Below, piece after piece: positions 4,305 to 22,328 of a stretch of DNA of 34,095 bases. A program made the position numbers and the translations under genes. The notes beneath the pieces were generated by a model. It saw only the letters and a list, made by a program, of their open reading frames with translations. It searched no databases and was not told where the DNA came from. Source of the DNA: a virus; IMG/VR virus record IMGVR_UViG_3300047550_003244, positions 1 to 34,095 of that record. One strand, 5' to 3'. Position 1 is the first letter of the stretch. Each line of letters begins with the position of its first letter.

Positions 4305-4910
4305 CTATTTTTGTGTTTCATTTTCTGGATTTGGTTGATTAGGTGCCAAATCGTGCGTTGTTACAGATATTTTTTCAATTTCACTGTAAGGTAATTGATC
4401 AATATAGTACCTTCTAGTAATTGGCATAGTTGCTTCTTCTGGTTTTGATTTTTCGTAGTTTGTAAATCCAGGCATAGCAAGAGGGCAATTTAACTTTGGA
4501 TAATCAAGTTTACTATATTCTTCTCCCTCTGCCACTAACCAAGTACCTTTTCTGTCCCCGCAACCACAACCGCCACAAAAATGTTTTCCTGGAGTTGATG
4601 AATTTTTTAAATGTTCGCAGGGGGGAAGAACTCCACCTTGATTTTTATTACCAAAACAAGAAAGAACTCGTAATTGTTTTATTGGTTTTGTTACTTTTTG
4701 ATTATTAATTCCCCGCGATGCAATTGCCATAGCAAAACTTTGCATCATGGTTAATTTTTGTTTTAATGCAGACTCTGGAGTTGCTATTTCTCCTGGTCTA
4801 AAATTTACCGACTGTTCTGTTGTTTTTGGTGCTAAAATTGGAGGTAGTGTGGTATTTTGATTGTTTTCGTTATTTGGTTCATTGTTTTTATTTCTGCAAT
4901 TGCAACCCAT
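4305..4910 (-). CDS. Conserved-looking Cys-rich protein, possible metal binder (function unknown)
   Basis: This 201-residue protein opens with MGCNCRNK, followed by an Asn-rich, low-complexity stretch to about residue 25. The centre holds a Cys cluster: CFGNK, then PPCEHL, then CGGCGCGDRKGTW at about residues 112-124, and NCPLAMPGF at about 142-150. The spacing of six to eight cysteines suggests a zinc or iron-sulfur site or a disulfide-rich fold; no named domain can be assigned. The segment EYSKLDYPKLNCPLAMPGFTNY looks too regular to be random, and I believe similar hypothetical proteins occur in other large phages, but this is memory rather than a search. The gene is the last before the terminator and follows the 536-residue gene by ten bases with AAGGAT as its ribosome site. 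A role with the Cys-rich adhesins (structural or as an assembly helper) is only inferred from its position. Confidence 0.6.
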   Translation of the reverse strand: MGCNCRNKNNEPNNENNQNTTLPPILAPKTTEQSVNFRPGEIATPESALKQKLTMMQSFAMAIASRGINNQKVTKPIKQLRVLSCFGNKNQGGVLPPCEHLKNSSTPGKHFCGGCGCGDRKGTWLVAEGEEYSKLDYPKLNCPLAMPGFTNYEKSKPEEATMPITRRYYIDQLPYSEIEKISVTTHDLAPNQPNPENETQK

Positions 4911-4920
4911 AATATAATCC

Positions 4921-6531
4921 TTATGTTAAAAGTATTCTTCTAAAAAACATCATTGTTGCTGGTGTTTTCTTGTCAATCAATACAGTTTTATAGTTTATAG
5001 AATAAGAAGAATCTACTGCCACTCCATAAACAAAACTTTTTCCTAATGATTTATTCTTTTTTGTTTTACTGTTTAAGTATTTAGTGTCAAATAAAGAAGA
5101 AGATGTGAGAGTTCCAAGATTTTCTATATTTTTTGATTTTAAATATGCAGAATAAAAGTATAATTCATATATTGATGGAATGTAAAAATCTATAAATCCT
5201 TTTCTATCTGCGTACCGAATAGTATTTGTTACAGCAGTGTTTATTCCTGAAAAACTATTACTGCCGTATGTATTATAATATCCATCCCATAGAGAAGTTT
5301 GATAACTTAAATCCTGTTCACCTTTAAATAAAAATGGAGCACTGTATCTATTTGGATCTACTATTATTGCCCATTTTGCACCAGTTCCACCAATCGAATC
5401 TGCATTTACTGTATTTAAGGTTGGAGATCCAAAACTTAAATTTCCATAAACCAAACTGCTTTTTCCATTTAAATATGGAGGTTCAAATATTCCAATATAG
5501 ATTCCACCTTGAAAACTATCTCCCGATGTAAGACCTAATGCATTAAATGCACTTAATCCCATTTCTTGGACCACATATTTTCCAAAAGTATTTTTTACAG
5601 GATCTGATGGTCTATATGTTTCTCCAGATATTCCACAATATGGATTATCTGAATCTTCCACTTCTACCCAATATCCAGTGCACAATGATTTTGGAGTTAT
5701 TGTGCATTCATATTCTAATGTAATTCCATTTTCTACTAATGAGTAACAAGAACCCAAATCAAATTCATCATATACTGAAGGAATGTTAACCATTCTTCTT
5801 AAATTTGAATTTGTACTACAATTTGCAACAGGTGTTCCTTCAATCAAAGGAACATTGCATCGTGTAGATGAATTGTAAATGGAAACATATGCAGATTGAG
5901 ATAGTGCACCACAATCTGAAGGATTGCAGACATCTGTGCAAACTACAGAAGAAGGTTCTCCATATTCATTATAACTTAAATGACAACATGCTCTTGCAGC
6001 ACGCGCGTCTAAAGTAGCACCAATCATGCAATAATTTTTCCAGTAATAAGGAGAAGTTGTATCTTCACTTAAAGTATTTGGACAATTACCTGGAGTCCAC
6101 TTTCCTCCTATACTTTCACAGTAGCATTTACTAGTAAATGATCTAAGACCAGGACCATCGCCAGAAATTGCATTTGGATCTGTTTGTGGATCGGAGGATG
6201 GTGATAAATACGGAGAACTTCCTGCAACTGGATCACCATTTGGAGATGTTAATGTAGGCATCTGCTGTTGAGCAGCAGATGTCATAAACTTGCAAGCACA
6301 GCAACATCCTTCATCATTATTTATTTGTGGACATGATACATTTTCATAATTTCCATCTGGCACTGGTATATAAATTCCACCATAAACCCAGCATTCATAA
6401 AATGAAGTTATTAATGGTTCAGAAAGATTTCCACCAGATCCACCTATATTGCAACAAACTCCATATCCGTTTAAAGCGTCAGAATAATCAAATGCTGGTT
6501 TAATTCTAGAACGAAAATGGACGCTTGACAT
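4921..6531 (-). CDS. Cys-rich virion protein with a C-terminal DUF1566/Lcl_C-like domain
   Basis: This 536-residue protein has no collagen stalk. Residues 1-230 are Cys-rich (GVCCNIGG near 23, GCCCACKF, KCYCESIGGKWTPGNCP, ACCHL) and match the second half of the repeats seen in the three giant proteins. From about residue 345 it resembles the C-terminal halves of the 1260- and 1267-residue proteins: GGIYIGIFEPP, then KWAIIVDP, then FIDFYIPSIYELYF at about 445-458, ending with a basic FFRRI. This order of motifs resembles the DUF1566/Lcl_C family, probable C-type-lectin-like ligand binders. The WSST motif present in the two relatives is not recognisable here. The start codon overlaps the stop of the 1291-residue gene (TAATG), suggesting that both products are made together. 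It is probably a distal adhesin or accessory virion protein; the domain call is by eye. Confidence 0.6.
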   Translation of the reverse strand: MSSVHFRSRIKPAFDYSDALNGYGVCCNIGGSGGNLSEPLITSFYECWVYGGIYIPVPDGNYENVSCPQINNDEGCCCACKFMTSAAQQQMPTLTSPNGDPVAGSSPYLSPSSDPQTDPNAISGDGPGLRSFTSKCYCESIGGKWTPGNCPNTLSEDTTSPYYWKNYCMIGATLDARAARACCHLSYNEYGEPSSVVCTDVCNPSDCGALSQSAYVSIYNSSTRCNVPLIEGTPVANCSTNSNLRRMVNIPSVYDEFDLGSCYSLVENGITLEYECTITPKSLCTGYWVEVEDSDNPYCGISGETYRPSDPVKNTFGKYVVQEMGLSAFNALGLTSGDSFQGGIYIGIFEPPYLNGKSSLVYGNLSFGSPTLNTVNADSIGGTGAKWAIIVDPNRYSAPFLFKGEQDLSYQTSLWDGYYNTYGSNSFSGINTAVTNTIRYADRKGFIDFYIPSIYELYFYSAYLKSKNIENLGTLTSSSLFDTKYLNSKTKKNKSLGKSFVYGVAVDSSYSINYKTVLIDKKTPATMMFFRRILLT

Positions 6532-9500
6532 TAGGTTTCCTCACAAAGTTCGTAATCAACACAGTCTCCACATGAAGTCCTTACACAAATATAATCAGTA
6601 TTATTTAGATAAACTTTTACATTTTTAAGAGAAGAGAACCCAGAAAATGAACTACACTGATTAGTATATGATGAAAATGTTGGATCATATCTTTGTGATG
6701 ATCCATTACTGTACCATTGCTGCTCTGTTGCATTAGATGCCCCCAAAAAACAAGAATCAGAAGGTATAGGACACCAATATTGATAAATATTATCTTCTTC
6801 TGCCCACTGAGTACACTGTTCAGTTGTATTATTACAAAAATCTTCTCCAGTTACTTCACCATTGCCGCTAGAGTTACCTTCTCCTAAAACTGGACCACCA
6901 TCATCAACACAACTACATGGAGATGTGCAATCATAGTAATCGCAAATCCATCCTCCTCGCCTTTTTAGCAATATTTGTCCTCCTCCTGGTCCCTCCTCAC
7001 CACCACAATATCTCTCCCAAGTAAAAGGAATATCTGTTCCAAATTTTAGTGGATTCACCCAAAAAGGTGCAGCAGTAGAGCAAGGAGTATTTGGGGATGG
7101 GCATCTTCTACATTTACATGCATTATTTGGATTAGAAAATGACACATTGCTATCTGGGTAAAGTGCAACTCCCGCATTTCCCCAAAAGTCTAAAACTTTA
7201 TTTGCAATTAGTTGAACTGCAAGGGTGGCATTGGACATCTCATTTACCTCCCCCGTTGTGCCAAAAATATTAAACAATATATTTTGTGCATTGCAATAAT
7301 TGTTATTAAATGGAGATAATGATGGTGTTAAAGATGTTTCCCATGGAATGTTTATTCCTAATGTATTAAACATTAAATCACAGCAACCATTAAATCCAGG
7401 AGATTCAGGATTATCAATACATTCAACATTTTTGTTAAATGGAACTCTCTCTATGTGTATAACAAGTGGGCATGGTGCTATTCCCAATCTTGGATCATTG
7501 GATCCATGTATAACTCTTTGTGCCTGATTGTCTGGTATATAACCCTCAGTTGTCAGATTTGCTCCTGCTGTATATCCCATTATTCTTAAAACAGGTTTTG
7601 TCTTGATTGTGCTATTGCATAATAAACAATCACTAGTAAATTCGCCAGTATTGCATGGAATTCCTTTTGGTCTATTACATGGTCTAAAGAAATATGGAAC
7701 CTCTTGACATGAATTGCCAGTACATCCAAACAATGCATTTGGTTTATTATACCACACACCACCACCAGCACAACATTCTGTTTTTGTTGTTACATTTGGC
7801 AAGCAATTATTATTTTTACAACAAATTCCTTCTGCGCCATTAAAACAATTTCCACCGCCACCTCCACCAAACCCTGTTCCAAACCCTGTTCCTCCTGAAC
7901 CACCAGATCCACCAATGCAAGGATTAGATGCGCAAGAAACATATGGAACAAACTGTCCAGTGCACTGTCCGCGAGTAACATTATCTACACAACCACCACT
8001 TTGTCCTCCTGGTGGAGTTGTTCCTTGACAATTATTATCTTCACATGCATTTGGATTTGTTCCCAACCAAGTTCCATGCCCTAAGGGAAAATTGACACAT
8101 TCATATTCAGTTAAGTTGTTAGTACAATTGCCTGGAGAATTTGGAGGTGCAAGATCTCCGCGTATACAACAATAACCAGTTGGTCCACTTAATCCACCGC
8201 CTCCACCTGGTGGTAAAAGTCCTAGTCCACCCCCACCACCAGATATTGGACCACCACCGCAATTATCAGTAGCTTGTGGACAATTATCACCCTCATATGT
8301 TCCACAAATATAGAGATTAGGAGGAACAACCGAGCATGGTGCATCGTCTGGAACAAAATCGCGATTACAAGCTATTCCTGATGGTGTGCAATACGAATAA
8401 CACGGAGTAATTTCTTCACATTCTTCTCCGTTATCGTCAACTATGCGTCGAACATAACTACAACAACAACGATTTCCAGCTGGAATAGTACCATCTGAAT
8501 TTAAATTGCAAGTACACCCTGCTAAACATAAGTCTCTTGTTGAACTCCATTTTTTATATGGTCCAGAGCATTGAGACTGTGTTGATGGAACACAAGCAAA
8601 TTCGGGATCTTCTGTTGCAACATCATTTATATTTTGACAACAGAATCCATCTTCATCTGTGCCTCCACCTCCACCTCCACCGCCACAACAAGATCCAGTT
8701 GGTCCACCACCACCACTTCCACCAGATACACCAATTGAACAAACACATGCACAGGATACATCTGTACATCTTAAATTTGGACCCATAAATGAACCATTGA
8801 GTGCTCTGCATTCAGAAACACTAACATCATCTCTGCATTCATATCCACCGAATTCATCACAAATACAACATGGACCAGAATTAACAGTAAGATCACAGCA
8901 ATTAACTAAATCACATGAATCTCTGTTTGGTGGATGACCAATATCATTTTCATCTGGAATTGCAGTCATTGCTTTTCCACCAAGAACAATTTCACACTGT
9001 GCTCTAGTATAATTTCCTAAACATTTTCCACCTTTGCAACAAACAGTTGGTGTATCACAAGGATCATAACAAAATCTTCCTTGTAATCTAAGTTGATCCT
9101 CTGTTAAATCGCCACTTGGATAATTAAGACCATCTGGATTAAATGAACCACAAGAAATTCCTTTCCAAAATATTCCTCCAAAACTTTCACAAAGTCTTGG
9201 AGATATACTTTCAACACATGAACCATTTACACAACAAACTCCATTTTCAGCACAATTTTCCGAACAAGAACTCATTGGATTAAATGTGCCATATAAAAAG
9301 TCACATTGTCTTTTTGTTACATATTCTTGACAACCAAGGGTTCCTCCAGGAGTTTCATAACAACAAGACCCAAACAAATATCCTGGAATACATTGTTCTG
9401 CATCTTGAATTCCATGACCACGATGCGCTACTGTTGCATACCAAGAATACCCACGATTAAAACTAGTAAGTCCAATTATGTTTTTTCCACAACTTAAATA

Positions 9501-10406
9501 ATTTTCACCCTGTTCAAAATAAATATTAATTGGAAAAACCCAAACATCATCACCATTTATAACTAAAGTTGCCGAAAGTATTTGGTTATCGCCAAAGTTA
9601 TCATATCCAGTAAATCCACGAATTCCTATTGGAGTATTAAGCACAAATGTTCCAGCTGCATTTAGATCTAAATATACTCCTAAAGTTGCTGGTGGAGAAA
9701 TTGTATAAGGAAGGCCAGTTATTCCATGAATTGATCCTGGAGGTATTGGATTAAGAGTTAATATTTTTGATCCAGAATTTAAATGATAACTGGTATCATC
9801 TTTTCCTGCTCCATCATATACAGTGTTTGTAAAATTAAAAGCTCCAGAATGTCCTTTACTTATGTTTTCAGATGTTAATGGACTATAAGTTAATCCACCT
9901 CCAAATACTGTATATGGGTTTCCTAAATACAGTATTTTTCCAACACCCATTGTGGTTGCATCATAATTTCCAATTATATTTGTGCCAAAATAAATTGAAT
10001 CTATAGAAATATATTCATTATTTGGTCCAGTTAATGATGCATACAAAGAACCAGTTGCTGTAAGTCCTTTTATTATAAAAGTTCCACCAATAACTTGATG
10101 AAATATTCCATATCTTTGTGTGTCTTCGGAAGAACCTGTATTAGATCCCTTTACTAATCCAAATGTTTTATCTGCAGTTGTGCTTCCTCTAAAATTTCCA
10201 GAAACCGAAAATGTAGTTCCATCAGAAAGTGTTAGTTGTATTACACCTCCTGCAGCAGTTGCAGAAACAAAATATACAGCAATATTTCCAGTAAACCCAG
10301 TTGTTCCAGGAATACCAGTCGGACCTATAGAACCAGTTAAACCAGTTGGACCTCTATTTCCAGTTATACCGTAAGTTAAAATGTCAATTATTGGACTATT
10401 ACTCAT
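6531..10406 (-). CDS. Giant collagen-like, Cys-repeat virion protein (putative adhesin 3)
   Basis: This protein has 1291 residues. Residues 13-40 form a short collagen-like Gly-X-Thr stalk. Residues 41-345 are Gly/Ser/Thr-rich and beta-like. Residues 345-930 hold the longest Cys-rich array in the window, about eight imperfect units built on G-x-CC, a short loop, C-x5-7-C, an aromatic GG-F/W stretch and C-x2-6-C (examples: GVCCVNGSC, VCCKGGKCLG, ICCKNNNCL). Units are separated by poly-Gly linkers near 570-585, 715-740 and 850-870. The C-terminal 360 residues are unlike the two sister proteins: the DUF1566-like motifs are absent, and an unrecognised region (LAVQLIANKVLDFWGNAGVAL) precedes more Cys pairs (CKCRRC, CGDCVDYELC). 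The stop overlaps the start of the 536-residue gene. The ATG at 10406 has only a weak AAAAGAA site. Cysteines this dense suggest disulfide bonding after release. Its role as a fibre or surface adhesin is inferred. Confidence 0.65.
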   Translation of the reverse strand: MSNSPIIDILTYGITGNRGPTGLTGSIGPTGIPGTTGFTGNIAVYFVSATAAGGVIQLTLSDGTTFSVSGNFRGSTTADKTFGLVKGSNTGSSEDTQRYGIFHQVIGGTFIIKGLTATGSLYASLTGPNNEYISIDSIYFGTNIIGNYDATTMGVGKILYLGNPYTVFGGGLTYSPLTSENISKGHSGAFNFTNTVYDGAGKDDTSYHLNSGSKILTLNPIPPGSIHGITGLPYTISPPATLGVYLDLNAAGTFVLNTPIGIRGFTGYDNFGDNQILSATLVINGDDVWVFPINIYFEQGENYLSCGKNIIGLTSFNRGYSWYATVAHRGHGIQDAEQCIPGYLFGSCCYETPGGTLGCQEYVTKRQCDFLYGTFNPMSSCSENCAENGVCCVNGSCVESISPRLCESFGGIFWKGISCGSFNPDGLNYPSGDLTEDQLRLQGRFCYDPCDTPTVCCKGGKCLGNYTRAQCEIVLGGKAMTAIPDENDIGHPPNRDSCDLVNCCDLTVNSGPCCICDEFGGYECRDDVSVSECRALNGSFMGPNLRCTDVSCACVCSIGVSGGSGGGGPTGSCCGGGGGGGGTDEDGFCCQNINDVATEDPEFACVPSTQSQCSGPYKKWSSTRDLCLAGCTCNLNSDGTIPAGNRCCCSYVRRIVDDNGEECEEITPCYSYCTPSGIACNRDFVPDDAPCSVVPPNLYICGTYEGDNCPQATDNCGGGPISGGGGGLGLLPPGGGGGLSGPTGYCCIRGDLAPPNSPGNCTNNLTEYECVNFPLGHGTWLGTNPNACEDNNCQGTTPPGGQSGGCVDNVTRGQCTGQFVPYVSCASNPCIGGSGGSGGTGFGTGFGGGGGGNCFNGAEGICCKNNNCLPNVTTKTECCAGGGVWYNKPNALFGCTGNSCQEVPYFFRPCNRPKGIPCNTGEFTSDCLLCNSTIKTKPVLRIMGYTAGANLTTEGYIPDNQAQRVIHGSNDPRLGIAPCPLVIHIERVPFNKNVECIDNPESPGFNGCCDLMFNTLGINIPWETSLTPSLSPFNNNYCNAQNILFNIFGTTGEVNEMSNATLAVQLIANKVLDFWGNAGVALYPDSNVSFSNPNNACKCRRCPSPNTPCSTAAPFWVNPLKFGTDIPFTWERYCGGEEGPGGGQILLKRRGGWICDYYDCTSPCSCVDDGGPVLGEGNSSGNGEVTGEDFCNNTTEQCTQWAEEDNIYQYWCPIPSDSCFLGASNATEQQWYSNGSSQRYDPTFSSYTNQCSSFSGFSSLKNVKVYLNNTDYICVRTSCGDCVDYELCEET
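7615..9370 (-). repeat. Cys-rich repeat array encoded in the 1291-residue protein
   Basis: About eight degenerate units of 40-70 residues share a CC pair, a C-x5-7-C spacing, and a Gly/aromatic stretch before the last Cys pair. They are separated by Gly-rich linkers whose DNA is simple (CCACCT-like on the plus strand). The repeats are similar in protein sequence, not near-identical in DNA, so they are old duplications. Boundaries are approximate. Confidence 0.7.
10287..10371 (-). repeat. Collagen-like Gly-X-Y segment of the 1291-residue protein
   Basis: Codons for Gly recur every third position (GPTGLTG, GPTGIPGTTGFTG), with Thr favoured in the Y position. Collagen-like triplets in phage fibres are known to form trimeric rods, so a trimeric assembly is inferred. 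Confidence 0.85.
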
Positions 10407-10428
10407 AATTTATTCTTTTAAGTATATA

Positions 10429-13400
10429 TCAAGCATTAAATGGAATTACTGTTGTTTCTCCTGGTATATTACCAACAGCATAAAAATTTGCATTTCTTGG
10501 TTGTGTACAAATTCTTTCAACTCTATCTAAACATGAAGCACATCCAAAATTATCTCCAGAGGAACCAGCTCTATAATAATTTTGTAAAATATTTGTACTA
10601 TAGTAAAAATTCTTACAAGTTACAATAAGTGGTATTCTTCTTACTGGTCTTAAGTGTGCAATTCTGGCATTTCTATTTTGAGATCGCATTGCTCCAACTT
10701 CATTAGCAGGTCCATTAAATACTTGAGTTAACATTTTTTGACCATTAGAAACTGCCATGGTAAATTTGTATGCTTGATCTTCTGTTAATGAATTTTCATC
10801 ATTTGTTAAAACTGTTCCATTGAAATTAGTAGAAGTCAATCTTGTTGATGATAAGTATGGTTCAAGTTGAGGATCAATTGGTTCTAAAATATAATAATCT
10901 TTATTTAATGGATCATCATTGCTCCAGTTACGAAGACGAGAAACGCTTGTAGAGCTCCAATATTCATTTCCTGCTAAAATTTGATCTCCCTCTACTGCAA
11001 GAGAAGCATTTAAATCATTTAAATTCGAATACATATAATTCAATTCAGTTATACTCGGTATATACCAATCATTATAACCATACAGAAAACTGTTATTCCA
11101 ATTTGAAATTTGTCTAATTGCAGATGTTAATGGATTTTTTGAATCCCACATTCTAGCATATGCTTGTTTAAAATAATTAATATCGTTTTGCATCAATTCT
11201 GGATTAATATCGGAAGGCCATGCTGAACCATTTCCGAAACTAAATCTGCAATAAGCAGATGGATCACTTGTTGTTGTTAATCCTTCTCCTGATCTAAACC
11301 ACAAATATGGATTTCCTTTTGAGGTGGCATCATGAATTCTTGTAGACAATAAACCATCAACAGGATATGTTGGAGTTTCTTCTAATACTATTGCAGAGGG
11401 TGCACCACTTTCAGATGCAATATTAGATCCTTGCATCATTCCCCAACTTAGTTTTCTAGAACCCCCCGTTATTCCATCTTGAGTCAAGACTTCAACATCT
11501 TCGGGTGCAACAATCAATGCCCAGAGAACATGAATATCGTTATTTCCGTAAACATTTGCTGCTAAATGTTCGTATAGATTTGACTGATTAACCCCATCAA
11601 GTAATCCGTTAAAATATTCAACAGCAAGTCCAGAACCAACTAATGTATAAGAGAAAGCACCCCTATTTGTACTATAGTTGTATCCGCCCTCAAACATCAT
11701 TTCCGCTGGCCAATTCACTCCATTTAAATTTACCGCTTGTTGAACAATTGGTGCTCCTGCTTTCAACATGCATCTGGAATCTAATGAATTTTTTGGAAGA
11801 ACTCTGGGGAAAGTTCTATTAAAATATTGAATTACTCCACTATTTGTTATTCCTGTAGATGGTTTACATGTTCGAAGATACCAGTATGGAACATTTTCTA
11901 GATTTCCTCGTGGATTGATCATACATTCTAATGGTTCACCTAAAGCAGTTGATGGTGAATTAAAATCATCACATGGATTTGGCATTCCTATAAATCCAAC
12001 AAAATATCCTCCACCAAGTTTAGTTCCAGGTTGCAAACACGAATATAATTGTCTAGCATGAAGTGCTTTACATTCTATATCTTTAATAACATTTTGATCA
12101 AGTGGATTTTGATATCCTGTAAAATAGGTATCATTACCACCAGTTACTCCACCACAACAATTGACTTCAGAACACTTTACTCCAGCACCTCTGAAAACAC
12201 CATTGATACTGTACATGCAATCTTGTGGTGAAACATCTTCACGACAATCTCCTGTTTCTGTACAACATGCACCTTTTAATAAATTGCTTCTTGCACAGCA
12301 TTCTGGATCACCTTCTAATGATGTACATGTTGCACCAGGAACAAATGTTGCTCCTTCTATTGCCATGCATTCATTTTCTTTTAAGTTATAACATCTTCCA
12401 AATATGCAACATCTTCCAGTAGTTGAAAAAGTACCACATAATATTTGTGAACATCTGTGTGAATTTCTTGCACGATCAGCAATTGCTAATTGTTGTGCAG
12501 TTGGTGGTGGATCAAGTCTTCCATAACTTCCGCTAGGAATTCCTGGTAATTGATTTCCAGAAGAATTTGGAGAACCCGTTTCATAATAATCTCTGCAAAT
12601 TTTTCCTGGGGCAAAAATTCCATTTAATTGTTGACATCTTGCCGCTGATGTGTTTCTACATTTATATGGATCTCCAGTATAATTATACCAATCTTGATCA
12701 TATGTGCAACATGCACCTTCTGCTAAACACTCTCCTGCTCTGTCAGCACAAGATCTTGTTGCCCACTGACCTCTATAAGTATAAATGCAAGCATGTTTAC
12801 TAATATAATCCTTACATTCATAAGTTGAACTTCCATCAGATGTACATATACAGCAAGAACCTATGAATCCAGCATTGCTAAAATTTCCAGGAAGTGCTGC
12901 ACTTAATGGAGTATATGAATTTCTATTTTCATATCTTGGAAGATACATTGGAACATATCGATAACTGTATGGATTTGCAAATGATTTATACCAATTTGCA
13001 TTAAACTCATTAAGCGATTCTGGATTAGTATCATATCCAAATATAGATCGAATTATAAATCCAATTTCTGGAAAGGATAATGATCCATAAGATGAGTAAT
13101 ACGGTTCTCCAGGAGTTACAGGAAATTCAAGTGTATTAATTTGTGTTGAAAAAAATTGTGGACCATATTGCACTGTATCTGCATCATAAAATGTACTTGA
13201 TTTATACCAAAATGGATGAATAAATTTTTGCGATAAGTATGTTATTGTGTCAAAAGATAAACCACTTGTTACACCAATATACATTATTGGTGTATATGTA
13301 AAATATTCATCTCGTATATCGTTATTTGGTAAAAATGATGTTTCAATATTAAATAATTGAGTATAATATGGTAATGTTCTTGTAATGATATCTTGTGGTG

Positions 13401-14232
13401 GAGCAAAAGGAGAAGATGGATTATTTAAAAATAAAGGAACAACTGAATTATAAACAAGAGAGGTTCCATATTTTTCAGAAGTAAATCCAGCATTATATGT
13501 AAAGGTTGATCCAACTGTGCCAAATTGGAATCCAGACAGCGTATTTATAGTTCTCCAATTTTTATTATTATAGAATGCTTCTCTTGATACTTTTTGATCT
13601 ATAGTCAATTGTCTAGAACTTTGATCAAATTTTGTATTTGGTGCTGCAGAAGATTTAAATCCAGTATAATTGAAACCAGCATTTGGATTTACATATAACA
13701 ATTCACCAGTGTTTCCAATTGCAATTTCTTCATCTGCCAGTGTTGCTCCGTACAGATAGACTACGCTACTATCTGAAGTTATTCCTACAAATGTGGCACC
13801 AATTTCAAGACCTGGAGCACTTCCTTTTAATTCTATTCCTTTAAAAAATACAGTATTAGCTGCTTCATTATTTGAAAATGGAAAATATTCAAATATATTA
13901 TTATGAATAAAATTTGTAGATAAATTTTCAGTTGGTTCAGCATTTAATTCTCTAACACCAAATTTTGGAAGAATTGAAGCAGAATTTCCTGGATTTCCCT
14001 GCACATTTGCAAAAGTAAATGCATAATTATTTGCATAGAATATAATAGTGGTGCCATATCCAGTTATTCCAGTAACTCCTGCACCAGTCGGACCAGTAGG
14101 ACCACTAGTTCCACTCGGTCCAGTTGCACCAGTAGTTCCAGTTGCACCAGTTGCACCCGTTCTTCCTTGAGTTGCCCCAGAAATATTTGATGGTCTTATT
14201 ATTTGTACTACTCTTGATGAACCGTAAATCAT
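10429..14232 (-). CDS. Giant collagen-like, Cys-repeat, DUF1566/Lcl_C-like virion protein (putative adhesin 2)
   Basis: This protein has 1267 residues. It starts MIYGSSR, close to MLYGSSP of the next gene upstream, followed by a collagen-like stretch at about 19-60 (GRTGATGATGTTGATG). Residues 60-455 are Tyr/Ser/Asn-rich without a recognised domain. Residues 455-695 hold four Cys units (GSCCIC, GACCTYDQ, GRCCIFGRC, GACCTETGDC). Residues 730-1200 resemble DUF1566/Lcl_C: GGGYFVGF, WALIVAP, NDWYIPSITELNYMY near 1050, YWSSTS near 1092 and LRPVRRI near 1197. A short Tyr/Asn-rich and Cys-containing tail follows. The Legionella adhesin Lcl combines the same two elements, a collagen-like stalk and a C-terminal Lcl_C domain, which supports a trimeric adhesin role. 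It sits between two similar giants and probably arose by duplication. The domain identity is by motif only. Confidence 0.7.
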   Translation of the reverse strand: MIYGSSRVVQIIRPSNISGATQGRTGATGATGTTGATGPSGTSGPTGPTGAGVTGITGYGTTIIFYANNYAFTFANVQGNPGNSASILPKFGVRELNAEPTENLSTNFIHNNIFEYFPFSNNEAANTVFFKGIELKGSAPGLEIGATFVGITSDSSVVYLYGATLADEEIAIGNTGELLYVNPNAGFNYTGFKSSAAPNTKFDQSSRQLTIDQKVSREAFYNNKNWRTINTLSGFQFGTVGSTFTYNAGFTSEKYGTSLVYNSVVPLFLNNPSSPFAPPQDIITRTLPYYTQLFNIETSFLPNNDIRDEYFTYTPIMYIGVTSGLSFDTITYLSQKFIHPFWYKSSTFYDADTVQYGPQFFSTQINTLEFPVTPGEPYYSSYGSLSFPEIGFIIRSIFGYDTNPESLNEFNANWYKSFANPYSYRYVPMYLPRYENRNSYTPLSAALPGNFSNAGFIGSCCICTSDGSSTYECKDYISKHACIYTYRGQWATRSCADRAGECLAEGACCTYDQDWYNYTGDPYKCRNTSAARCQQLNGIFAPGKICRDYYETGSPNSSGNQLPGIPSGSYGRLDPPPTAQQLAIADRARNSHRCSQILCGTFSTTGRCCIFGRCYNLKENECMAIEGATFVPGATCTSLEGDPECCARSNLLKGACCTETGDCREDVSPQDCMYSINGVFRGAGVKCSEVNCCGGVTGGNDTYFTGYQNPLDQNVIKDIECKALHARQLYSCLQPGTKLGGGYFVGFIGMPNPCDDFNSPSTALGEPLECMINPRGNLENVPYWYLRTCKPSTGITNSGVIQYFNRTFPRVLPKNSLDSRCMLKAGAPIVQQAVNLNGVNWPAEMMFEGGYNYSTNRGAFSYTLVGSGLAVEYFNGLLDGVNQSNLYEHLAANVYGNNDIHVLWALIVAPEDVEVLTQDGITGGSRKLSWGMMQGSNIASESGAPSAIVLEETPTYPVDGLLSTRIHDATSKGNPYLWFRSGEGLTTTSDPSAYCRFSFGNGSAWPSDINPELMQNDINYFKQAYARMWDSKNPLTSAIRQISNWNNSFLYGYNDWYIPSITELNYMYSNLNDLNASLAVEGDQILAGNEYWSSTSVSRLRNWSNDDPLNKDYYILEPIDPQLEPYLSSTRLTSTNFNGTVLTNDENSLTEDQAYKFTMAVSNGQKMLTQVFNGPANEVGAMRSQNRNARIAHLRPVRRIPLIVTCKNFYYSTNILQNYYRAGSSGDNFGCASCLDRVERICTQPRNANFYAVGNIPGETTVIPFNA
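12150..12870 (-). repeat. Cys-rich repeat array encoded in the 1267-residue protein
   Basis: Four units of about 40-90 residues follow the pattern G-x-CC, C-x6-8-C, Gly-aromatic and C-x2-9-C. The last unit (GACCTETGDC to EVNCC) is the most regular and could serve as a query. Boundaries are approximate. Confidence 0.7.
14055..14166 (-). repeat. Collagen-like Gly-X-Y segment of the 1267-residue protein
   Basis: More than ten Gly-X-Y triplets, mostly Gly-Ala-Thr and Gly-Pro-Thr, occur in one run with one interruption near GAGVTG. It is the longest collagen-like stalk in the window. Confidence 0.88.
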
Positions 14233-14247
14233 AGTTTTTTTACCATG

Positions 14248-17200
14248 CTATGTCTGAACAATATTTGCAATTATGGAACTCCACTGTGGATCTGATGTAA
14301 AATTAGATGCGTTGTATTGTTCATTATTTGCATTTGTACCATTGACAATAGCACCATCAGTTAATCTTGGAATATGCCACATTCTATTTGCACATATTTC
14401 ATAACCTGTATTATTATATTCATTTCCATAATATCTTTGATCACAACGAATCAAACGAACTAATCTCAATTCATATTTATCGTAAAAATCATCTCCCTTT
14501 TTAACTTTAAAATCCGTGGACACTGGAGCAGATTGTGTTTCTGTATCAAATGCTGGGAATTTTAATGCCCAAGCCTTTGTAAATTGGTGAGTGTTTACTT
14601 GATAAAAATGAGGTCCAGTTACTGAAACTGTTATTGGATTGTTTGTTTTAGGAACACCTCCTGTTGCTTGAATGTATTGTTTTGTGTTGCCTTCATCAAA
14701 ACATCCAGTAGAGGACCAAACCCATCCATTTGCACCAAGGGCAGCAGATCCTATAGGAATTCCTTGTCCTAAAGTTGGATTACCTCCACCACCCACACCT
14801 CCACCACCCACACCTCCACCACCCACACCTCCACCAGCACCACCCAACAATCTAAAAGTAATTTCTTTATTTGTTGAATTAGAAAAACTGTCTATATCAC
14901 CTAGAGTGGTACTTCTCAATCCAGAAGAATTAACTTGATAATTGTAAATTTTTTCTTGCAAATTATGTTTTACACATTGATTTGCAATAAAGGATAATTC
15001 ATCTATGCTTGGAACAAACCATCTAGAAACTTGTGGATATCCCGTTGCTCCCATTTCCTCAACTGTGTAATATTTTCTATTATAAACACTAGTTCCCTCT
15101 GCAATTGTTGTTTTTGCATGTTGACCGTTTGCTCTAAAGTTTGCAGTAAACCCAAAAGTAGGATGTTGTCCTGTTGCACCATATAATGAACGCAATTCGG
15201 TATACATTCCCGATCCTGCTCTTAAATAATATTCTGCAGCATCAGAACTAAATAATCTTGTACAATTGTACATTCCCCAATTTCTAGCCCAATAACCTGT
15301 ATTGGTTGTAAGAAGATTTGGTTTTCCTAAGCGTGTTCGTTTACATGGAGCTCTCCAACAATTTTGAAGACATGGGCCAAGAGATATTTGATTTCCCCAA
15401 CAAAAATCAAAAGATGTAGTATTACCCCAATATGTTGCTCCTGGTATTCCAAGATGCGATGTTGGCAATGTTCCATAAAACCCATCATTGCGTAAATTGA
15501 CACTTGTAGCTTCACAATTTAATGGTTCAATTAGGTCTGTGCCTTGAGTAACAATATGACCATCTTTTAAATTAGTTGCTAAAGTAAAACAATGTGATGT
15601 ACCACCATGACTCCAAGTAAATAAATTAATTTTTCTTTCATACATTTCAAATTGGTCTACTGTAGTTGGAGTTAGACTAGAAAACTCCACTGTGCTAGTA
15701 TCAGGTTCAATTGGTTCATTTGTATAAAAATCAGCATAATAATTTTCTGTTCCCAAAATACTGTTTTCATATAGTTGGGGTTTGATTCTCGCAGGGAATG
15801 GTAAAACTATTAATAACCAACTCTCACATCTCGAAGGAACTAGACCTGAAGGCAATTCATTATTTTTTGGAAGAGTAAATCCATATCCCCTGTCATCAAA
15901 AAAACTTCTATAATATTGTGCAGTTTTTTCATTTCCATTATTTAATTGATTAAACAATCCTCCAGCTAGACCCGATGGGTGTGAAGGGTTTGTTGCCTCA
16001 TTAAATTCTACATGCATAAGATCTAGACCGTTATAGGTTATTCCTGTAAATTCTCCACCAAAAGCATCAGCATTTCCTAAACATGTTGATCCCGAAGGTC
16101 TAAAAACTCCAGCAACAATTCCTCCAGCAAAAAAATCACCAATATTTAATTCAGTATACTGTCCAGTAAATATTCCAGTTACTGGATCATATTTTTTCAC
16201 TCTGAATGTATTTCCATCATAGCACTGTGGACAATTTGATTGAGTTGGAGGTGGTGGACCAGTTGGACCAGTCCCACCAGTGCCACCAGTTGGACCCGCT
16301 TCGCCCTCACATATAAATGAACCGCATGTAAATCCACATCCATAATAAACACCTGTACAACCAGTTATTGAAAAGTCGCCATATCGTTGTCTGTTTGTGC
16401 AATTGCCATTTACACAACAACCAGCAGTTGCTCCATTAAATCCTAAACATCTTTGATATAAAAAATTTCCAGAACCTGTATAACTGCAGACAGTTCCAAC
16501 TCCTTGCCAATATCCGTTTGCCGCTATACATTCATTTCTTGTTTTATTGTCTTGGCATCCACCAGAACCATTACAACAAGAACCTGTTTCGTTATATGCT
16601 GCAGCACAATCAACTGCTCCTGGAGCTCTATTACAATTATCAAACAATGTCCAATGTGACCAAGGAGTTTGATTTGAACTTCTAGAAATTCTTAAGCAGT
16701 CACATGATCTTACTGGAGAGGGATGTGTGACAATTTCATCATTTGAATTTTTATAACAACAATATCCAATTGGATCTCCATTTGCAGTACATCCAGGATA
16801 ATTAATGTTTTGGTGAGGAAAGAAATATGCATTTCCACTGCTAACTAAAGACTGACACCCCGATCTAACGGTAACAAATGATGTTCCTGCGCTGCACCCA
16901 ACACAGCACAAACCAACTGGATCATAAACTGGGTCATCAATTTCTATTGATCCAGCACAATTATTATATGTTTTATTCCAGGAAATTTGTTCATTTCCGC
17001 TATTATACATGCCATAATTTGCGTGCCATATTCCTTCAATATAAAATGCATTTATGACATCCAATCCTTCAGTAAAACATGGAGGATATGTTAATGGCCA
17101 TGAAATATTATTTTCGCCACCACCAAGAACATAACTATTTGAGTTTGTTGATATGTATTTTGTTGCAACTTTACCTGTTATTCCTGGTGGAACAACAATT

Positions 17201-18030
17201 GTTATTGCTTTTGCAAAAGCAGGATCGGCATTTTTAAAAACAATAATCTGATTTGTAACCACTTGCCCAACAGAAAGTTGATCTGTAAATGAGTTTAAAA
17301 CAAATGTTGGTGCTTCTTCCCAATCTAAATACCAGTAAAAATAAAATCCAGCAGTAGTGTTATTTGGATCTGACTGTCTCTTTACTGGTCTTACATATTT
17401 TACTCGTTCACCATAGTTTATAGTTTGCAAATTTACAGTTTTTGAGTTTACATCATATTCTGTTCCTGTAAGTCCACCAAATCTATTTGCGGAGTGTGCA
17501 ACAACTAATTGTCCCGTGGATCCACCAGATAATCCTAAAAATGGAAGTCCAACCAGTGTATAATCTATAACTATATCTTTTGGTCCACCAGGAATTGTAT
17601 TCAATGCCGATGGTGGATTTATACTAATTATATTTAATCCTGGTTTTCGAGATGCTGTTGTTAATCCTCTAAAATTTAAAGTATTAACTGTATATTTTTC
17701 TATTCCAAAATCATAAACTGAAGCAGAAACTCCAGCAAAAATATCTATTACTTGATCTGATGCGTTTTGACCATCAGCAAAAACATAGTAATCTCCATCA
17801 TTTCCTTTTATTTCACTGCCAACGCGCGTTGTGACATTATCATCGAATGTAGTTATTACTACATTTGAAGAGTTTGTCATTCCACTTATGCTTGGACCAG
17901 TTGCACCTGTTTGACCTGTTCCTCCATGTGCTCCAGTTGGTCCAACTGGACCCGTAAATCCAGTTGGTCCCGTTGGGCCAAATGCTCCTCTAAATTTTTT
18001 CTGTAAATATGGACTGCTTCCGTATAGCAT
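14248..18030 (-). CDS. Giant collagen-like, Cys-repeat, DUF1566/Lcl_C-like virion protein (putative adhesin 1)
   Basis: This protein has 1260 residues. It starts MLYGSSPYLQKKFRGAFGPTG, with a collagen-like stalk at about 15-50. Residues 50-375 are beta-like. Residues 375-573 hold four Cys units (GLCCVGC, GYCCYKN, GSCCNGSGGC, GCCVNGNC), followed by a second short collagen-like segment and a Pro run at 575-598. The C-terminal half resembles DUF1566/Lcl_C: GGIVAGVFRPSG near 625, WLLIVLPFP, SRWFVPSIDELSFI near 1003, WVWSSTG near 1105, and YELRLVRLIR near 1195. An unusual Gly-rich loop (GGGVG repeats, residues 1063-1083) is inserted before the WSST motif. The gene begins 11 bases after the stop of the 377-residue gene. 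The protein is a likely homotrimeric fibre or surface adhesin and the first of three tandem paralogues. The ligand is unknown. Confidence 0.7.
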   Translation of the reverse strand: MLYGSSPYLQKKFRGAFGPTGPTGFTGPVGPTGAHGGTGQTGATGPSISGMTNSSNVVITTFDDNVTTRVGSEIKGNDGDYYVFADGQNASDQVIDIFAGVSASVYDFGIEKYTVNTLNFRGLTTASRKPGLNIISINPPSALNTIPGGPKDIVIDYTLVGLPFLGLSGGSTGQLVVAHSANRFGGLTGTEYDVNSKTVNLQTINYGERVKYVRPVKRQSDPNNTTAGFYFYWYLDWEEAPTFVLNSFTDQLSVGQVVTNQIIVFKNADPAFAKAITIVVPPGITGKVATKYISTNSNSYVLGGGENNISWPLTYPPCFTEGLDVINAFYIEGIWHANYGMYNSGNEQISWNKTYNNCAGSIEIDDPVYDPVGLCCVGCSAGTSFVTVRSGCQSLVSSGNAYFFPHQNINYPGCTANGDPIGYCCYKNSNDEIVTHPSPVRSCDCLRISRSSNQTPWSHWTLFDNCNRAPGAVDCAAAYNETGSCCNGSGGCQDNKTRNECIAANGYWQGVGTVCSYTGSGNFLYQRCLGFNGATAGCCVNGNCTNRQRYGDFSITGCTGVYYGCGFTCGSFICEGEAGPTGGTGGTGPTGPPPPTQSNCPQCYDGNTFRVKKYDPVTGIFTGQYTELNIGDFFAGGIVAGVFRPSGSTCLGNADAFGGEFTGITYNGLDLMHVEFNEATNPSHPSGLAGGLFNQLNNGNEKTAQYYRSFFDDRGYGFTLPKNNELPSGLVPSRCESWLLIVLPFPARIKPQLYENSILGTENYYADFYTNEPIEPDTSTVEFSSLTPTTVDQFEMYERKINLFTWSHGGTSHCFTLATNLKDGHIVTQGTDLIEPLNCEATSVNLRNDGFYGTLPTSHLGIPGATYWGNTTSFDFCWGNQISLGPCLQNCWRAPCKRTRLGKPNLLTTNTGYWARNWGMYNCTRLFSSDAAEYYLRAGSGMYTELRSLYGATGQHPTFGFTANFRANGQHAKTTIAEGTSVYNRKYYTVEEMGATGYPQVSRWFVPSIDELSFIANQCVKHNLQEKIYNYQVNSSGLRSTTLGDIDSFSNSTNKEITFRLLGGAGGGVGGGGVGGGGVGGGGNPTLGQGIPIGSAALGANGWVWSSTGCFDEGNTKQYIQATGGVPKTNNPITVSVTGPHFYQVNTHQFTKAWALKFPAFDTETQSAPVSTDFKVKKGDDFYDKYELRLVRLIRCDQRYYGNEYNNTGYEICANRMWHIPRLTDGAIVNGTNANNEQYNASNFTSDPQWSSIIANIVQT
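14783..14842 (-). repeat. 15-bp tandem repeat encoding GGGVG units
   Basis: The plus strand shows three exact copies of CCTCCACCACCCACA at 14783, 14798 and 14813 and a diverged fourth from 14828. The unit length is a multiple of three, so copy-number change would lengthen or shorten a Gly/Val loop inside the C-terminal domain of the 1260-residue protein without a frameshift. Confidence 0.95.
16255..16299 (-). repeat. Second collagen-like segment of the 1260-residue protein
   Basis: Five Gly-X-Y triplets (GPTGGTGGTGPTGPP) lie between the Cys-rich region and the C-terminal domain, followed by four prolines. It looks like a short rigid spacer. Confidence 0.85.
16310..16910 (-). repeat. Cys-rich repeat array encoded in the 1260-residue protein
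   Basis: Four imperfect units with CC pairs at their starts and C-x2-9-C at their ends, related to those of the two following genes. The unit GSCCNGSGGCQDNKTRNEC is the clearest. Boundaries are approximate. Confidence 0.7.
17894..17988 (-). repeat. Collagen-like Gly-X-Y segment of the 1260-residue protein
   Basis: About ten Gly-X-Y triplets (GPTGPTGFTGPVGPTG and onwards) follow a short basic N-terminus. As in the two sister genes, the stalk is at the extreme N-terminus, the end that would attach to the virion. Confidence 0.88.
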
Positions 18031-18041
18031 TTAAAACTTTC

Positions 18042-19175
18042 TTATATTCTTAATCTATCTTCAATTGTTTGTATTCTGGCTTCATGATCATCAAGAACTG
18101 TTTCAACATTTGTATCTTCGTTTCCTACAATCACCGAATCTGCTGTTACCGTATTTGCTAAAATATTGCTAGGAACACTTACTCGTATTCCCATTGGTTG
18201 TACTTTTAATCCTACACTTACTCTTTGATTTGGTGCTGGTGTTCCATATGCTGTTTCAATTAATAAAGGTTGTGGTAAACGAATTATTGGAGTTTGAGTT
18301 GCATACACAGATGCAGAATCTATCGCATATTGCAAATTTTGACCACCTGGATCAACTATAAGATTTTTGCTAAGAGAAACTTGTGGACTGTTTGGTTCTT
18401 TAAGAATTAATAATGTTTTATATCCTATTTCTGCAACTGATCCTGTATATTGAACTCCAGCAACTGCTGTTTGTGATACACGCATTCCAACTTGAATTGT
18501 TCCAGACAGTTCATTTACTGTTATTATTTTTTCAACATATCCATATTGTGTGCCAAATTTTGAATAAAATTCTGGATAATCTGCTATTGGGAGTTTTTGC
18601 GATGTGCTAGTGTCTATAAATCCTTCTTCAAATGTATTATTTCCAATAACAATTTGAAGATTTCCAATTTCTGTATCATCCAATACTGCTTGAATCTCCC
18701 CACCAATTCTATATCCCAGATAATTCATAACTACGCCACTATATGATCCAGCACCGTGTGGTGCCGCTTGATATACTGGTTTGATAATATGATCTAGACT
18801 GTTTGGAGCAAGATTCTGAAGTGCTCCTGCAGTTATTCCACTTAAAAAATAAACATCGTTTCCACCAGAACCACCAGTTGTTCCACTAATATTTAATAAA
18901 TTTTGAGAATTTATATTAATAGAACCATATAGTATTACAACTAAATTATTGTTTGAAGAGTTATATGATTCTACTACCCCAAAAACTTCAGAATTTGGTG
19001 CTGTATCTGCCTTTGCAGATGTATAACCACTAGTTAATACATCATATCTCACCACGCTACCATTTGTTAATCCAACTGTATATGGAATTTCTACAAGCAA
19101 ACGAGAACCACCCTGCACAACACTAAAAGTGTTTATTGATGATTGTATGTTTGAACTATTGCTACAACTGGGCAT
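18042..19175 (-). CDS. Fibre-type virion protein with a shared head domain and C-terminal coiled coil
   Basis: This 377-residue protein has a domain at about 40-150 that clearly matches residues 100-210 of the 782-residue protein: GSVVR, SGYT-x-AKAD-x-A, EV-x-G, then a YFL-x-x-x-TAG segment. At about 190-205 it shows LPIADYPEFYSKFGTQYG, reminiscent of phage tail-collar domains where a Pro-rich segment is followed by a YG. The C-terminus (ETVLDDHEARIQTIEDRLRI) is a short coiled coil ending the protein, which suggests trimerisation or docking onto another fibre part. It lies between a fibre-type gene and the giant adhesins, 11 bases before the latter, and has GGAG as ribosome site. It may be a short fibre or a connector; the receptor is unknown. 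No T4 homologue is recognised. Confidence 0.6.
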   Translation of the reverse strand: MPSCSNSSNIQSSINTFSVVQGGSRLLVEIPYTVGLTNGSVVRYDVLTSGYTSAKADTAPNSEVFGVVESYNSSNNNLVVILYGSININSQNLLNISGTTGGSGGNDVYFLSGITAGALQNLAPNSLDHIIKPVYQAAPHGAGSYSGVVMNYLGYRIGGEIQAVLDDTEIGNLQIVIGNNTFEEGFIDTSTSQKLPIADYPEFYSKFGTQYGYVEKIITVNELSGTIQVGMRVSQTAVAGVQYTGSVAEIGYKTLLILKEPNSPQVSLSKNLIVDPGGQNLQYAIDSASVYATQTPIIRLPQPLLIETAYGTPAPNQRVSVGLKVQPMGIRVSVPSNILANTVTADSVIVGNEDTNVETVLDDHEARIQTIEDRLRI

Positions 19176-19195
19176 TTATTACTCCATTACTAATT

Positions 19196-21560: not shown

Positions 21561-22328
21561 TTAATTAGTAGTAGTAACTGGTTGTTCATCAATATAAGTT
21601 ACCGTAGCAGTGGTTGCATTAAATGTTATTTTAAATATTGGATAAAAATTATCTCCAGATGCTATACTTGTTCGTATTTCTATTGGATCTGTAAATGAAA
21701 CCTTCAATCTAGAAGCACCGCATGTAAAAAATGAATTTTGCGCATTCCCAGAAGAATTGTCTCGTATTGTATCATCCTGATCAGTTCCGCATGTTGATGA
21801 TGGGCAGCAAGATATTTCAGTTTTTTCAGCAACAAATCCAATATAATTTATAGAATTTCCAGAAGTTGTTGTAGATATAGTCCTAAAATTAGTAGATCCA
21901 CTTTGATTTATGTAAATCCAAAATCCAAGACCTGTTGATTCATCTACCCAGTAGAACCAACTTGGACGCATAATTACATCAAATTGCCAAATTCCACTGA
22001 TCGGAGATGATGGAGTTGTCACTGTTGGTGCTGCTAACTCAGATGGCAAACTTTGACCAGGAATTGCTATTCTTGGATCACCAGGTATAAGTCCATCCCA
22101 AAATGGTATTTTACCGTATTGTGACCAATTTGAATTCAGTCTTGCTGTTAAACTTTGATTAATAAAAAATAATTCTTGAAGTTCATTTAATTCAGATGCC
22201 TGAAGTGCATATCCAGGATTAAACCCCAGCATGTAATAATTTTTATTCTCCTGTGAATACTGAGAACTAATTCTACTGTAGTATGGAACACCACTTAGTG
22301 GTAATGTACCTAATGGCAAATTTGGCAT
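21561..22328 (-). CDS. Putative baseplate or fibre-connector protein (function unknown)
   Basis: This 255-residue protein contains GFNPGYALQASELNELQELFFINQSLT at about 35-60. The core of this, A-L-Q-A-x-E-L-N-E-L-Q, occurs near the start of several phage baseplate-associated proteins (I recall a DUF4815-like family), where it forms an N-terminal helix. The middle is beta-rich (WQFDVIMRPSWFYWVDESTG), and residues about 175-205 hold five cysteines (CCPSSTCG, FFTCGA). The C-terminus is Thr-rich. It starts seven bases after the gp8-like gene and has an apparent late promoter of its own. By position it may link the baseplate wedge to the fibres, the place taken by gp9 or gp10 in T4. Sequence evidence for that role is weak. 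Confidence 0.5.
   Translation of the reverse strand: MPNLPLGTLPLSGVPYYSRISSQYSQENKNYYMLGFNPGYALQASELNELQELFFINQSLTARLNSNWSQYGKIPFWDGLIPGDPRIAIPGQSLPSELAAPTVTTPSSPISGIWQFDVIMRPSWFYWVDESTGLGFWIYINQSGSTNFRTISTTTSGNSINYIGFVAEKTEISCCPSSTCGTDQDDTIRDNSSGNAQNSFFTCGASRLKVSFTDPIEIRTSIASGDNFYPIFKITFNATTATVTYIDEQPVTTTN

What the first reader, a model, noticed from the sequence alone, without database searches (positions are those of the whole stretch)
6531..18030. Three tandem giant proteins combining a collagen stalk with Cys-repeat arrays
Three consecutive genes of nearly equal size (1260, 1267, 1291 residues) each begin with a short N-terminus and a Gly-X-Thr collagen-like stalk, then a beta-rich region, then CC-containing repeats. 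Together they take about 11.5 kb, a third of the window, where T4 has genes 9-12 and wac. Such heavily cysteine-bearing fibres would probably form disulfides only after lysis, which could harden them in the environment. I know of no described phage system built like this, but could not search.
Basis: partly seen in the sequence, partly recalled or inferred. Interest (0 to 1): 0.75.

Follow-up and report, generated by a model that had tools for sequence, protein, structure and literature searches.

The report
Cysteine-rich collagen-stalked phage adhesion fibres
An uncultivated group of T4-like phages carries a conserved set of four large, cysteine-studded tail proteins, three with a short collagen-like stalk and one with a head folded like the Legionella adhesin Lcl, and these probably form disulfide-reinforced host-binding fibres not described in any cultured phage.

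Summary
Three adjacent minus-strand genes (1260, 1267, 1291 aa) each start with 10-11 Gly-X-Y triplets (~30 aa), then a beta-rich domain, then CC-containing units. They sit in a T4-like tail module (gp53-hub-gp25-gp6-gp7?-gp8-P6-P5-P4-[C-B-A-D]-P14-gp13-gp14-gp15-gp16-gp17). A fourth cysteine-rich gene (D, 4921-6531) belongs to the set. tblastn finds no relative in 50,697 phage genomes, but the module is in 58 IMG/VR contigs (49 distinct); 26 show the complete C-B-A-D-P14-gp13 order. Across relatives cysteine is by far the most conserved residue (93-97%). In D, cysteines are gained or lost in pairs, which favours disulfides. B ends in a domain folded like Legionella Lcl's C-terminal domain (Z 9.7), the head of a collagen-stalked glycan-binding trimer; C and D carry related domains. 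A ends instead in a fast-evolving, indel-rich, cysteine-rich tip before a conserved 30-aa terminus. Best reading: a lineage-specific adhesion apparatus of collagen-anchored, disulfide-stiffened fibres with lectin-like and variable tips. Disulfides, trimers and virion location are inferred, not shown; 'hardening after lysis' is plausible but untested. New variant of a known kind (phage receptor-binding fibres).

The parts
6531..10406 (-). Gene A, 1291 aa, 96 Cys: collagen-like run, beta domain, conserved CC region, variable Cys-rich tip, conserved C-terminal motif
10281..10370 (-). Collagen-like run of A (aa 13-42, 10 triplets)
   Evidence: Gly positions invariant in 7 homologues
9372..10274 (-). 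Beta-rich domain of A (aa 45-345); aa 211-331 weakly resembles phage spike domains and chains of Klebsiella phage KP1 baseplate entries
   Evidence: AF2 model (low confidence over much of this part); VIA Z 4.5-5.8
8739..9371 (-). Conserved CC region of A (aa 346-556)
   Evidence: 25 of 31 Cys of aa 45-556 invariant in 31 sequences; pLDDT mostly 70-89
6624..8738 (-). Variable Gly/Pro/Cys-rich tip of A (aa 557-1261): fastest-evolving, indel-rich part of the module
6534..6623 (-). Conserved C-terminal motif of A (NVKVYLNNTDYICV...YELCEET)
10429..14232 (-). Gene B, 1267 aa, 39 Cys
14077..14166 (-). Collagen-like run of B (aa 23-52)
   Evidence: Pfam Collagen E 0.037, below cut-off
12133..12864 (-). 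CC region of B (aa 457-700), paralogous to that of A
   Evidence: hhalign ACC vs BCC E 2e-74 (the two sets partly overlap); A1 vs A2 E 9e-25
10633..12057 (-). C-terminal domain of B (aa 726-1200): Lcl_C / C-type-lectin-like fold with insertions
   Evidence: VIA Z 9.7 to 8q4e, 123 of 131 residues, 26% id; Pfam Lcl_C in 30 of 31 homologues
14248..18030 (-). Gene C, 1260 aa, 41 Cys
17890..17988 (-). Collagen-like run of C (aa 15-47, 11 triplets)
   Evidence: Pfam Collagen in 3 of 4 homologues
16306..16920 (-). CC region of C (aa 371-575)
   Evidence: BCC vs CCC E 5e-13
14263..16221 (-). C-terminal domain of C (aa 604-1256), related to those of B and D
   Evidence: hhalign E 2e-10 (B) and 2e-14 (D)
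4921..6531 (-). Gene D (P0013), 536 aa, 23 Cys: Cys-rich N-half and Lcl_C-like C-half, no collagen run; fourth member of the set
4305..4910 (-). P14, 201 aa with 8 Cys, conserved neighbour between D and gp13
18042..21544 (-). P4 (18042-19175) and P5 (19196-21544), conserved upstream neighbours; P5 aa ~420-730 matches tail fibre proteins of Stenotrophomonas and Rhizobium phages
30450..30824 (-). Cys-rich plus 9-triplet collagen insertion in the hub-like protein (aa ~806-930 of 1922)

Best explanation
Genes C, B, A and D form the host-adhesion apparatus of an uncultivated lineage of T4-like phages. SHOWN (computed): C, B and A start with a short collagen-like run, a beta-rich region and a paralogous CC region; D has a more diverged Cys-rich half; B has an Lcl_C-fold C-terminal domain and those of C and D are related to it by profile; A has a variable tip; gene order is conserved; cysteine is the most conserved residue. 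INFERRED: the proteins are virion components; each is a trimer whose collagen and beta segments anchor or align the fibre at the baseplate or tail; the CC regions are small disulfide-rich modules that stiffen the neck, oxidised after assembly or lysis, since no redox helper was found in the contigs searched; the Lcl_C-like heads of B, C and D make glycan contacts, and the tip of A is the part under host-driven diversification.
For: Position in the tail operon. Same order in 26 of 49 distinct relatives, the rest mostly truncated contigs. Cys conservation 0.97, 0.93 and 0.95 in A, B and D, other residues mostly 0.2-0.6 (Trp up to 0.76). D Cys counts odd in 29 of 31 rows, and 6 of 9 branches with changes carry exactly two (P = 0.0015); A P = 0.0075. 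Lcl fold of B: Z 9.7, next best 4.4; Lcl_C in 30 of 31; C and D heads related. Lcl is a trimeric collagen-stalked glycan-binding lollipop (PMC11162425). Tip of A: 63% identity where all other parts are 92-99% (L010/L023), same trend in most pairs. No thioredoxin or glutaredoxin in 10 partial relatives.
Against: No proteomics, EM or cultured relative. The pair-change signal is clear in D and weaker in A; B (P = 0.24) and C (P = 0.36) give none. Window B's Lcl_C score (21.9-24.2 bits) is below Pfam's cut-off of 34.9, and Foldseek's own E-value for 8q4e was only 0.2. The A model is low confidence (pLDDT 61). Trimerisation was not modelled.
Confidence: 0.66

Rival explanations
1. The conserved cysteines bind metal (zinc or iron-sulfur) in the reducing cytoplasm instead of forming disulfides; the CC units are zinc-knuckle-like folds that assemble before lysis.
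For: Tail proteins fold in a reducing cytoplasm; no thiol oxidase was detected (uninformative because its control rang nowhere); metal sites also conserve Cys.
Against: No His is invariant in A, B or D; CC pairs and spacing do not resemble regular CxxC...CxxC sites; Cys in D change in pairs, as expected for disulfides and not for four-ligand sites.
Confidence: 0.2
2. These are divergent orthologues of T4 gp9-gp12 (baseplate pins and short tail fibres) in which collagen, CC and lectin parts are lineage-specific insertions, with mainly structural instead of receptor roles.
For: Same position as gp9-gp12; a stretch of A (aa 211-331) weakly matches chains of Klebsiella phage KP1 baseplate entries and tailspike TSP4 (Z 4.5-5.1; best overall 5.8).
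Against: No PHROG or Pfam baseplate model hits A-D; Z below 8 may mean only a common arrangement; the lectin-like heads and variable tip point to surface binding.
Confidence: 0.25
3. A-D are neck or collar whiskers or head decoration (wac-like) that bind environmental glycans or particles, not the cell receptor.
For: They lie just upstream of gp13, where T4 has wac; collagen-like and lectin-like domains occur in decoration proteins; Lcl, a collagen-stalked protein with this head fold, binds sulphated glycans.
Against: Four large proteins and a variable tip are more typical of receptor-binding devices; pelagimyophages and cyanophages carry their tail-fibre region at the same place (PMC7029224).
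Confidence: 0.15
4. A-D are not virion proteins but are displayed on or released from the infected cell.
For: Lcl itself is a secreted surface adhesin (PMC11162425).
Against: Embedded in a structural operon between baseplate and neck genes in all relatives that show the context; none begins with an evident signal peptide (sequence inspection only).
Confidence: 0.05

Closest known systems
Legionella collagen-like protein Lcl (DUF1566/Lcl_C, PDB 8q4e)
   Same: Collagen-like run and a C-terminal Lcl_C domain; B's head has the same fold (Z 9.7, 26% id).
   Different: Phage tail operon; beta domain and Cys-rich neck lie between stalk and head; different collagen repeat sequence; Lcl-CTD lacks disulfides.
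Tail-fibre / host-recognition clusters of cyanomyophages and pelagimyophages (S-PM2, HTVC008M; PMC7029224)
   Same: Same genomic slot between gp8/VrlC and gp13; related gp6, gp13-gp17; triple collagen repeats reported in some of their structural proteins.
   Different: The large slot proteins there are Cys-poor (0.15-0.4% in S-PM2) without CC regions; no A-D profile match.
Disulfide-linked tail of Agrobacterium phage Milano (PMC10811340)
   Same: Virion tail and receptor-binding proteins rich in cysteine and joined by disulfides.
   Different: Milano structural proteins hold 2.1% Cys and cross-link sheath, tube and baseplate; here 3-7% Cys is concentrated in collagen-stalked fibre-type proteins of a different phage group.
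T4 gp9-gp12 and fibritin wac
   Same: Genomic position; fibre-type proteins.
   Different: No sequence match; different domain make-up.

Membership tests
Lcl-type collagen + DUF1566 adhesins | Gly-X-Y collagen-like region | tested here: met
   10-11 uninterrupted triplets in A, B and C
Lcl-type collagen + DUF1566 adhesins | C-terminal Lcl_C/DUF1566 domain (gene B) | tested here: met
   Fold Z 9.7 over 123 residues; Pfam Lcl_C in 30 of 31 homologues, best E 6e-8; window copy E 2e-4, below the curated cut-off
Lcl-type collagen + DUF1566 adhesins | C-terminal Lcl_C domain (gene A) | tested here: inconclusive
   No profile hit in A; its tip was not folded
Lcl-type collagen + DUF1566 adhesins | Trimer with glycan-binding surface | not testable with these tools
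   No multimer prediction or binding assay
T4 gp9-gp12/wac | Gene position between gp8 and gp13 | tested here: met
T4 gp9-gp12/wac | Sequence or fold homology | tested here: inconclusive
   No Pfam or PHROG baseplate hit; weak Z 4.5-5.8
Disulfide-crosslinked phage tails (Milano-type) | Conserved cysteines in tail proteins | tested here: met
Disulfide-crosslinked phage tails (Milano-type) | Disulfides in the virion | not testable with these tools
   Indirect only: paired Cys changes in D
Diversity-generating retroelement target (DUF1566) | Reverse transcriptase nearby | tested here: inconclusive
   No RVT_1 in 14 related contigs, but the contigs may be fragments; template/variable repeats were not searched

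The most novel reading that the evidence does not exclude
A dedicated four-gene system of disulfide-rich fibres, assembled reduced in the cytoplasm and locked by oxidation on release, so that redox state tunes adhesion or stability of the particle in oxygenated water; a collagen + cysteine-module + lectin architecture not described in phages and shared by a whole uncultivated lineage.
Probability: 0.3. Interest if true: 0.78.

Novelty: new variant of a known kind. Interest (0 to 1): 0.6.

Why it matters
It defines an unrecognised receptor-binding architecture in an uncultivated T4-like clade, links phage fibres to the Lcl collagen-lectin fold known from a bacterial adhesin, and offers a testable case of disulfide-reinforced phage tail fibres with a hypervariable tip that could help trace host range in uncultured viruses.

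Tried and rejected
Close homologue search with C gave nothing, with A 7 loci, with alignments 19 and 56 loci. Cyanobacterial marker psbA: none in 10 partial contigs. DGR diversification: no RVT_1. Phage-encoded redox helpers: no thioredoxin or glutaredoxin; the Erv1 search was uninformative because no control rang. Collagen hydroxylation: a 2OG-Fe(II) oxygenase in only 2 of 10 partial contigs. No PDB sequence match for A or D; only weak Lcl (8q4e, E 0.11) for B. Foldseek alone gave no E < 0.001 for either model. The genome-contig scan gave only short bacterial matches to B's Lcl_C-like region. Pair-change test not significant in B and C. The CC unit recalls repeats I remember from planctomycete secreted proteins; this is memory, not tested. 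Host not identified.

Full report
WHAT IS THERE. Each begins with a short N-terminus, 10-11 uninterrupted Gly-X-Y triplets, a beta-rich stretch and CC pairs. Total Cys is 96 (A), 39 (B) and 41 (C). CC-unit counts beat shuffles clearly in A and B; in C the strict pattern occurs only twice. A fourth cysteine-rich gene, D (4921-6531, 536 aa, 23 Cys, no collagen run), follows.

CONTEXT. PHROG models identify gp53, gp25, gp6, gp8, gp13, gp14, gp15 and gp17 around them, and a weak baseplate-type match for the gp7 position, i.e. a T4-like tail module. Its terminase is below 60% identical to every phage in the collection, best to marine Synechococcus myophages at 59%.

RELATIVES. tblastn of A, B, C and D against 50,697 phage records found nothing. 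In IMG/VR, searches seeded with A and B found 58 contigs. Merged by identical A N-terminal sequence there are 49 distinct ones; 26 show the complete order C-B-A-D-P14-gp13, and most others are cut by a contig end. In a few the A gene is duplicated with a 2900-3000-aa second copy, and in one subgroup D is split into its Cys half and its head. Profiles of the module find nothing in the matching regions of S-PM2, S-H9-2, HTVC008M or AG-345-P14, although flanking genes there do match. Positional equivalents in S-PM2 are Cys-poor.

PARALOGY. Profile comparison links the CC regions of A and B (E 2e-74, although the two homologue sets partly overlap; whole-protein A1 vs A2 E 9e-25), and those of B and A with C (E 5e-13, 5e-10); D is only weakly linked (E 7e-5 to 1e-3). 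Whole-protein comparisons also align the N-terminal collagen/beta regions of A, B and C, but with the collagen runs removed only A-C remains convincing (E 4e-7; B-C 1e-3, A-B 0.05). The three stalked genes therefore look like ancient duplicates, most clearly in the CC region.

CYSTEINES. In 29-31 aligned homologues, mostly 30-60% identical to the window copies, cysteine is conserved at 97% (A), 93% (B) and 95% (D); Trp reaches 0.61-0.76 and all other residues 0.6 or less. In D, Cys counts are odd in 29 of 31 rows, and of nine tree branches with changes six carry exactly two (permutation P = 0.0015); A gives P = 0.0075, B 0.24 and C 0.36. Paired gain and loss is what disulfides predict; the test is indirect, parsimony-based, and significant only in D and A. 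AF2 gives the CC region of A pLDDT mostly 70-89 with repeated strand-strand-helix-strand units. I could not measure S-S distances.

HEADS. The B model (aa 456-1243, pLDDT 76, above 90 in many blocks of its C-terminal part) matches the Legionella Lcl C-terminal domain 8q4e with Z 9.7 over 123 of 131 residues at 26% identity; the next entries, C-type lectin-like proteins, have Z 4.4 and less. Foldseek ranks the same entry first but with E 0.2. Pfam Lcl_C is found in 30 of 31 homologues, the window copy below the curated cut-off. C and D heads are related to B's by profile (E 2e-10, 2e-8; C-D 2e-14). Lcl is a trimer with a collagen stalk and globular glycan-binding head, and its CTD lacks disulfides (PMC11162425). 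In B too most cysteines sit in the neck, before the Lcl-like part.

TIP OF A. The part after the CC region is the most variable of the module: 63% identity against 92-99% for every other measured part in L010/L023, 47 against 71-93 in L054/L061, 68 against 73-100 in L009/L025; one close pair (L044/L045) shows no such difference. In L011/L023 the DNA is 96% identical and collinear up to the tip, where it is broken by an indel, and 93% identical again beyond. A 30-aa motif at the very end is again recognisable in many homologues.

MECHANISM (inferred). Collagen run and beta domain anchor and align a trimer; the CC region is a disulfide-stiffened neck; Lcl_C-like heads (B, C, D) bind surface glycans; A's tip supplies variable specificity. 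Since phage tails fold in a reducing cytoplasm and no redox helper was seen in the partial contigs, oxidation would follow lysis. Disulfide-linked phage tails exist (Milano, PMC10811340), so the idea is reasonable but unproven here.

VERDICT. A real, conserved, apparently undescribed variant of phage receptor-binding fibres. The individual elements (collagen stalk, Lcl_C fold, disulfide-rich tails) are known; the combination as a syntenic four-gene set is new as far as these searches reach. Literature searches covered open-access PMC only.

Noticed in passing
window 30450-30824 (hub-like protein, 27471-33239): The 1922-aa hub-like protein has its own Cys-rich plus GPT-collagen insertion at aa ~806-930, and a further cluster of Cys in aa 1700-1816.
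   Followed up: partly
L041, L052, L053: A is duplicated; the second copy (2900-3000 aa) keeps the collagen/beta/CC N-terminus and a similar C-terminal motif but has a long Cys-poor Ser/Thr-rich middle, suggesting the N-terminus is a portable attachment module.
   Followed up: partly
L067-L071 and L064: D is split into separate Cys-half and head ORFs, showing that the two parts are independent modules.
   Followed up: no
L065, D position: An open ORF of at least 2590 aa with 251 Cys and 34 CC pairs.
   Followed up: no
L088:14357-14749: A 156.7-kb relative carries a tmRNA gene (tag ANNNNYMAIAA) and several tRNAs; a possible host clue.
   Followed up: no
L093:12827-14599 and L093:16750-19716: Long Cys-poor collagen-like proteins (41 and 73 triplets) elsewhere in the 117.8-kb relative.
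   Followed up: partly
window 21561-22328 (P6): The N-terminus matches the start of VrlC of S-PM2 and phrog_358, suggesting P6 is a shortened VrlC-type protein.
   Followed up: partly
window 19196-21544 (P5): aa ~420-730 match tail fibre proteins of Stenotrophomonas and Rhizobium phages at 24-28% identity.
   Followed up: partly
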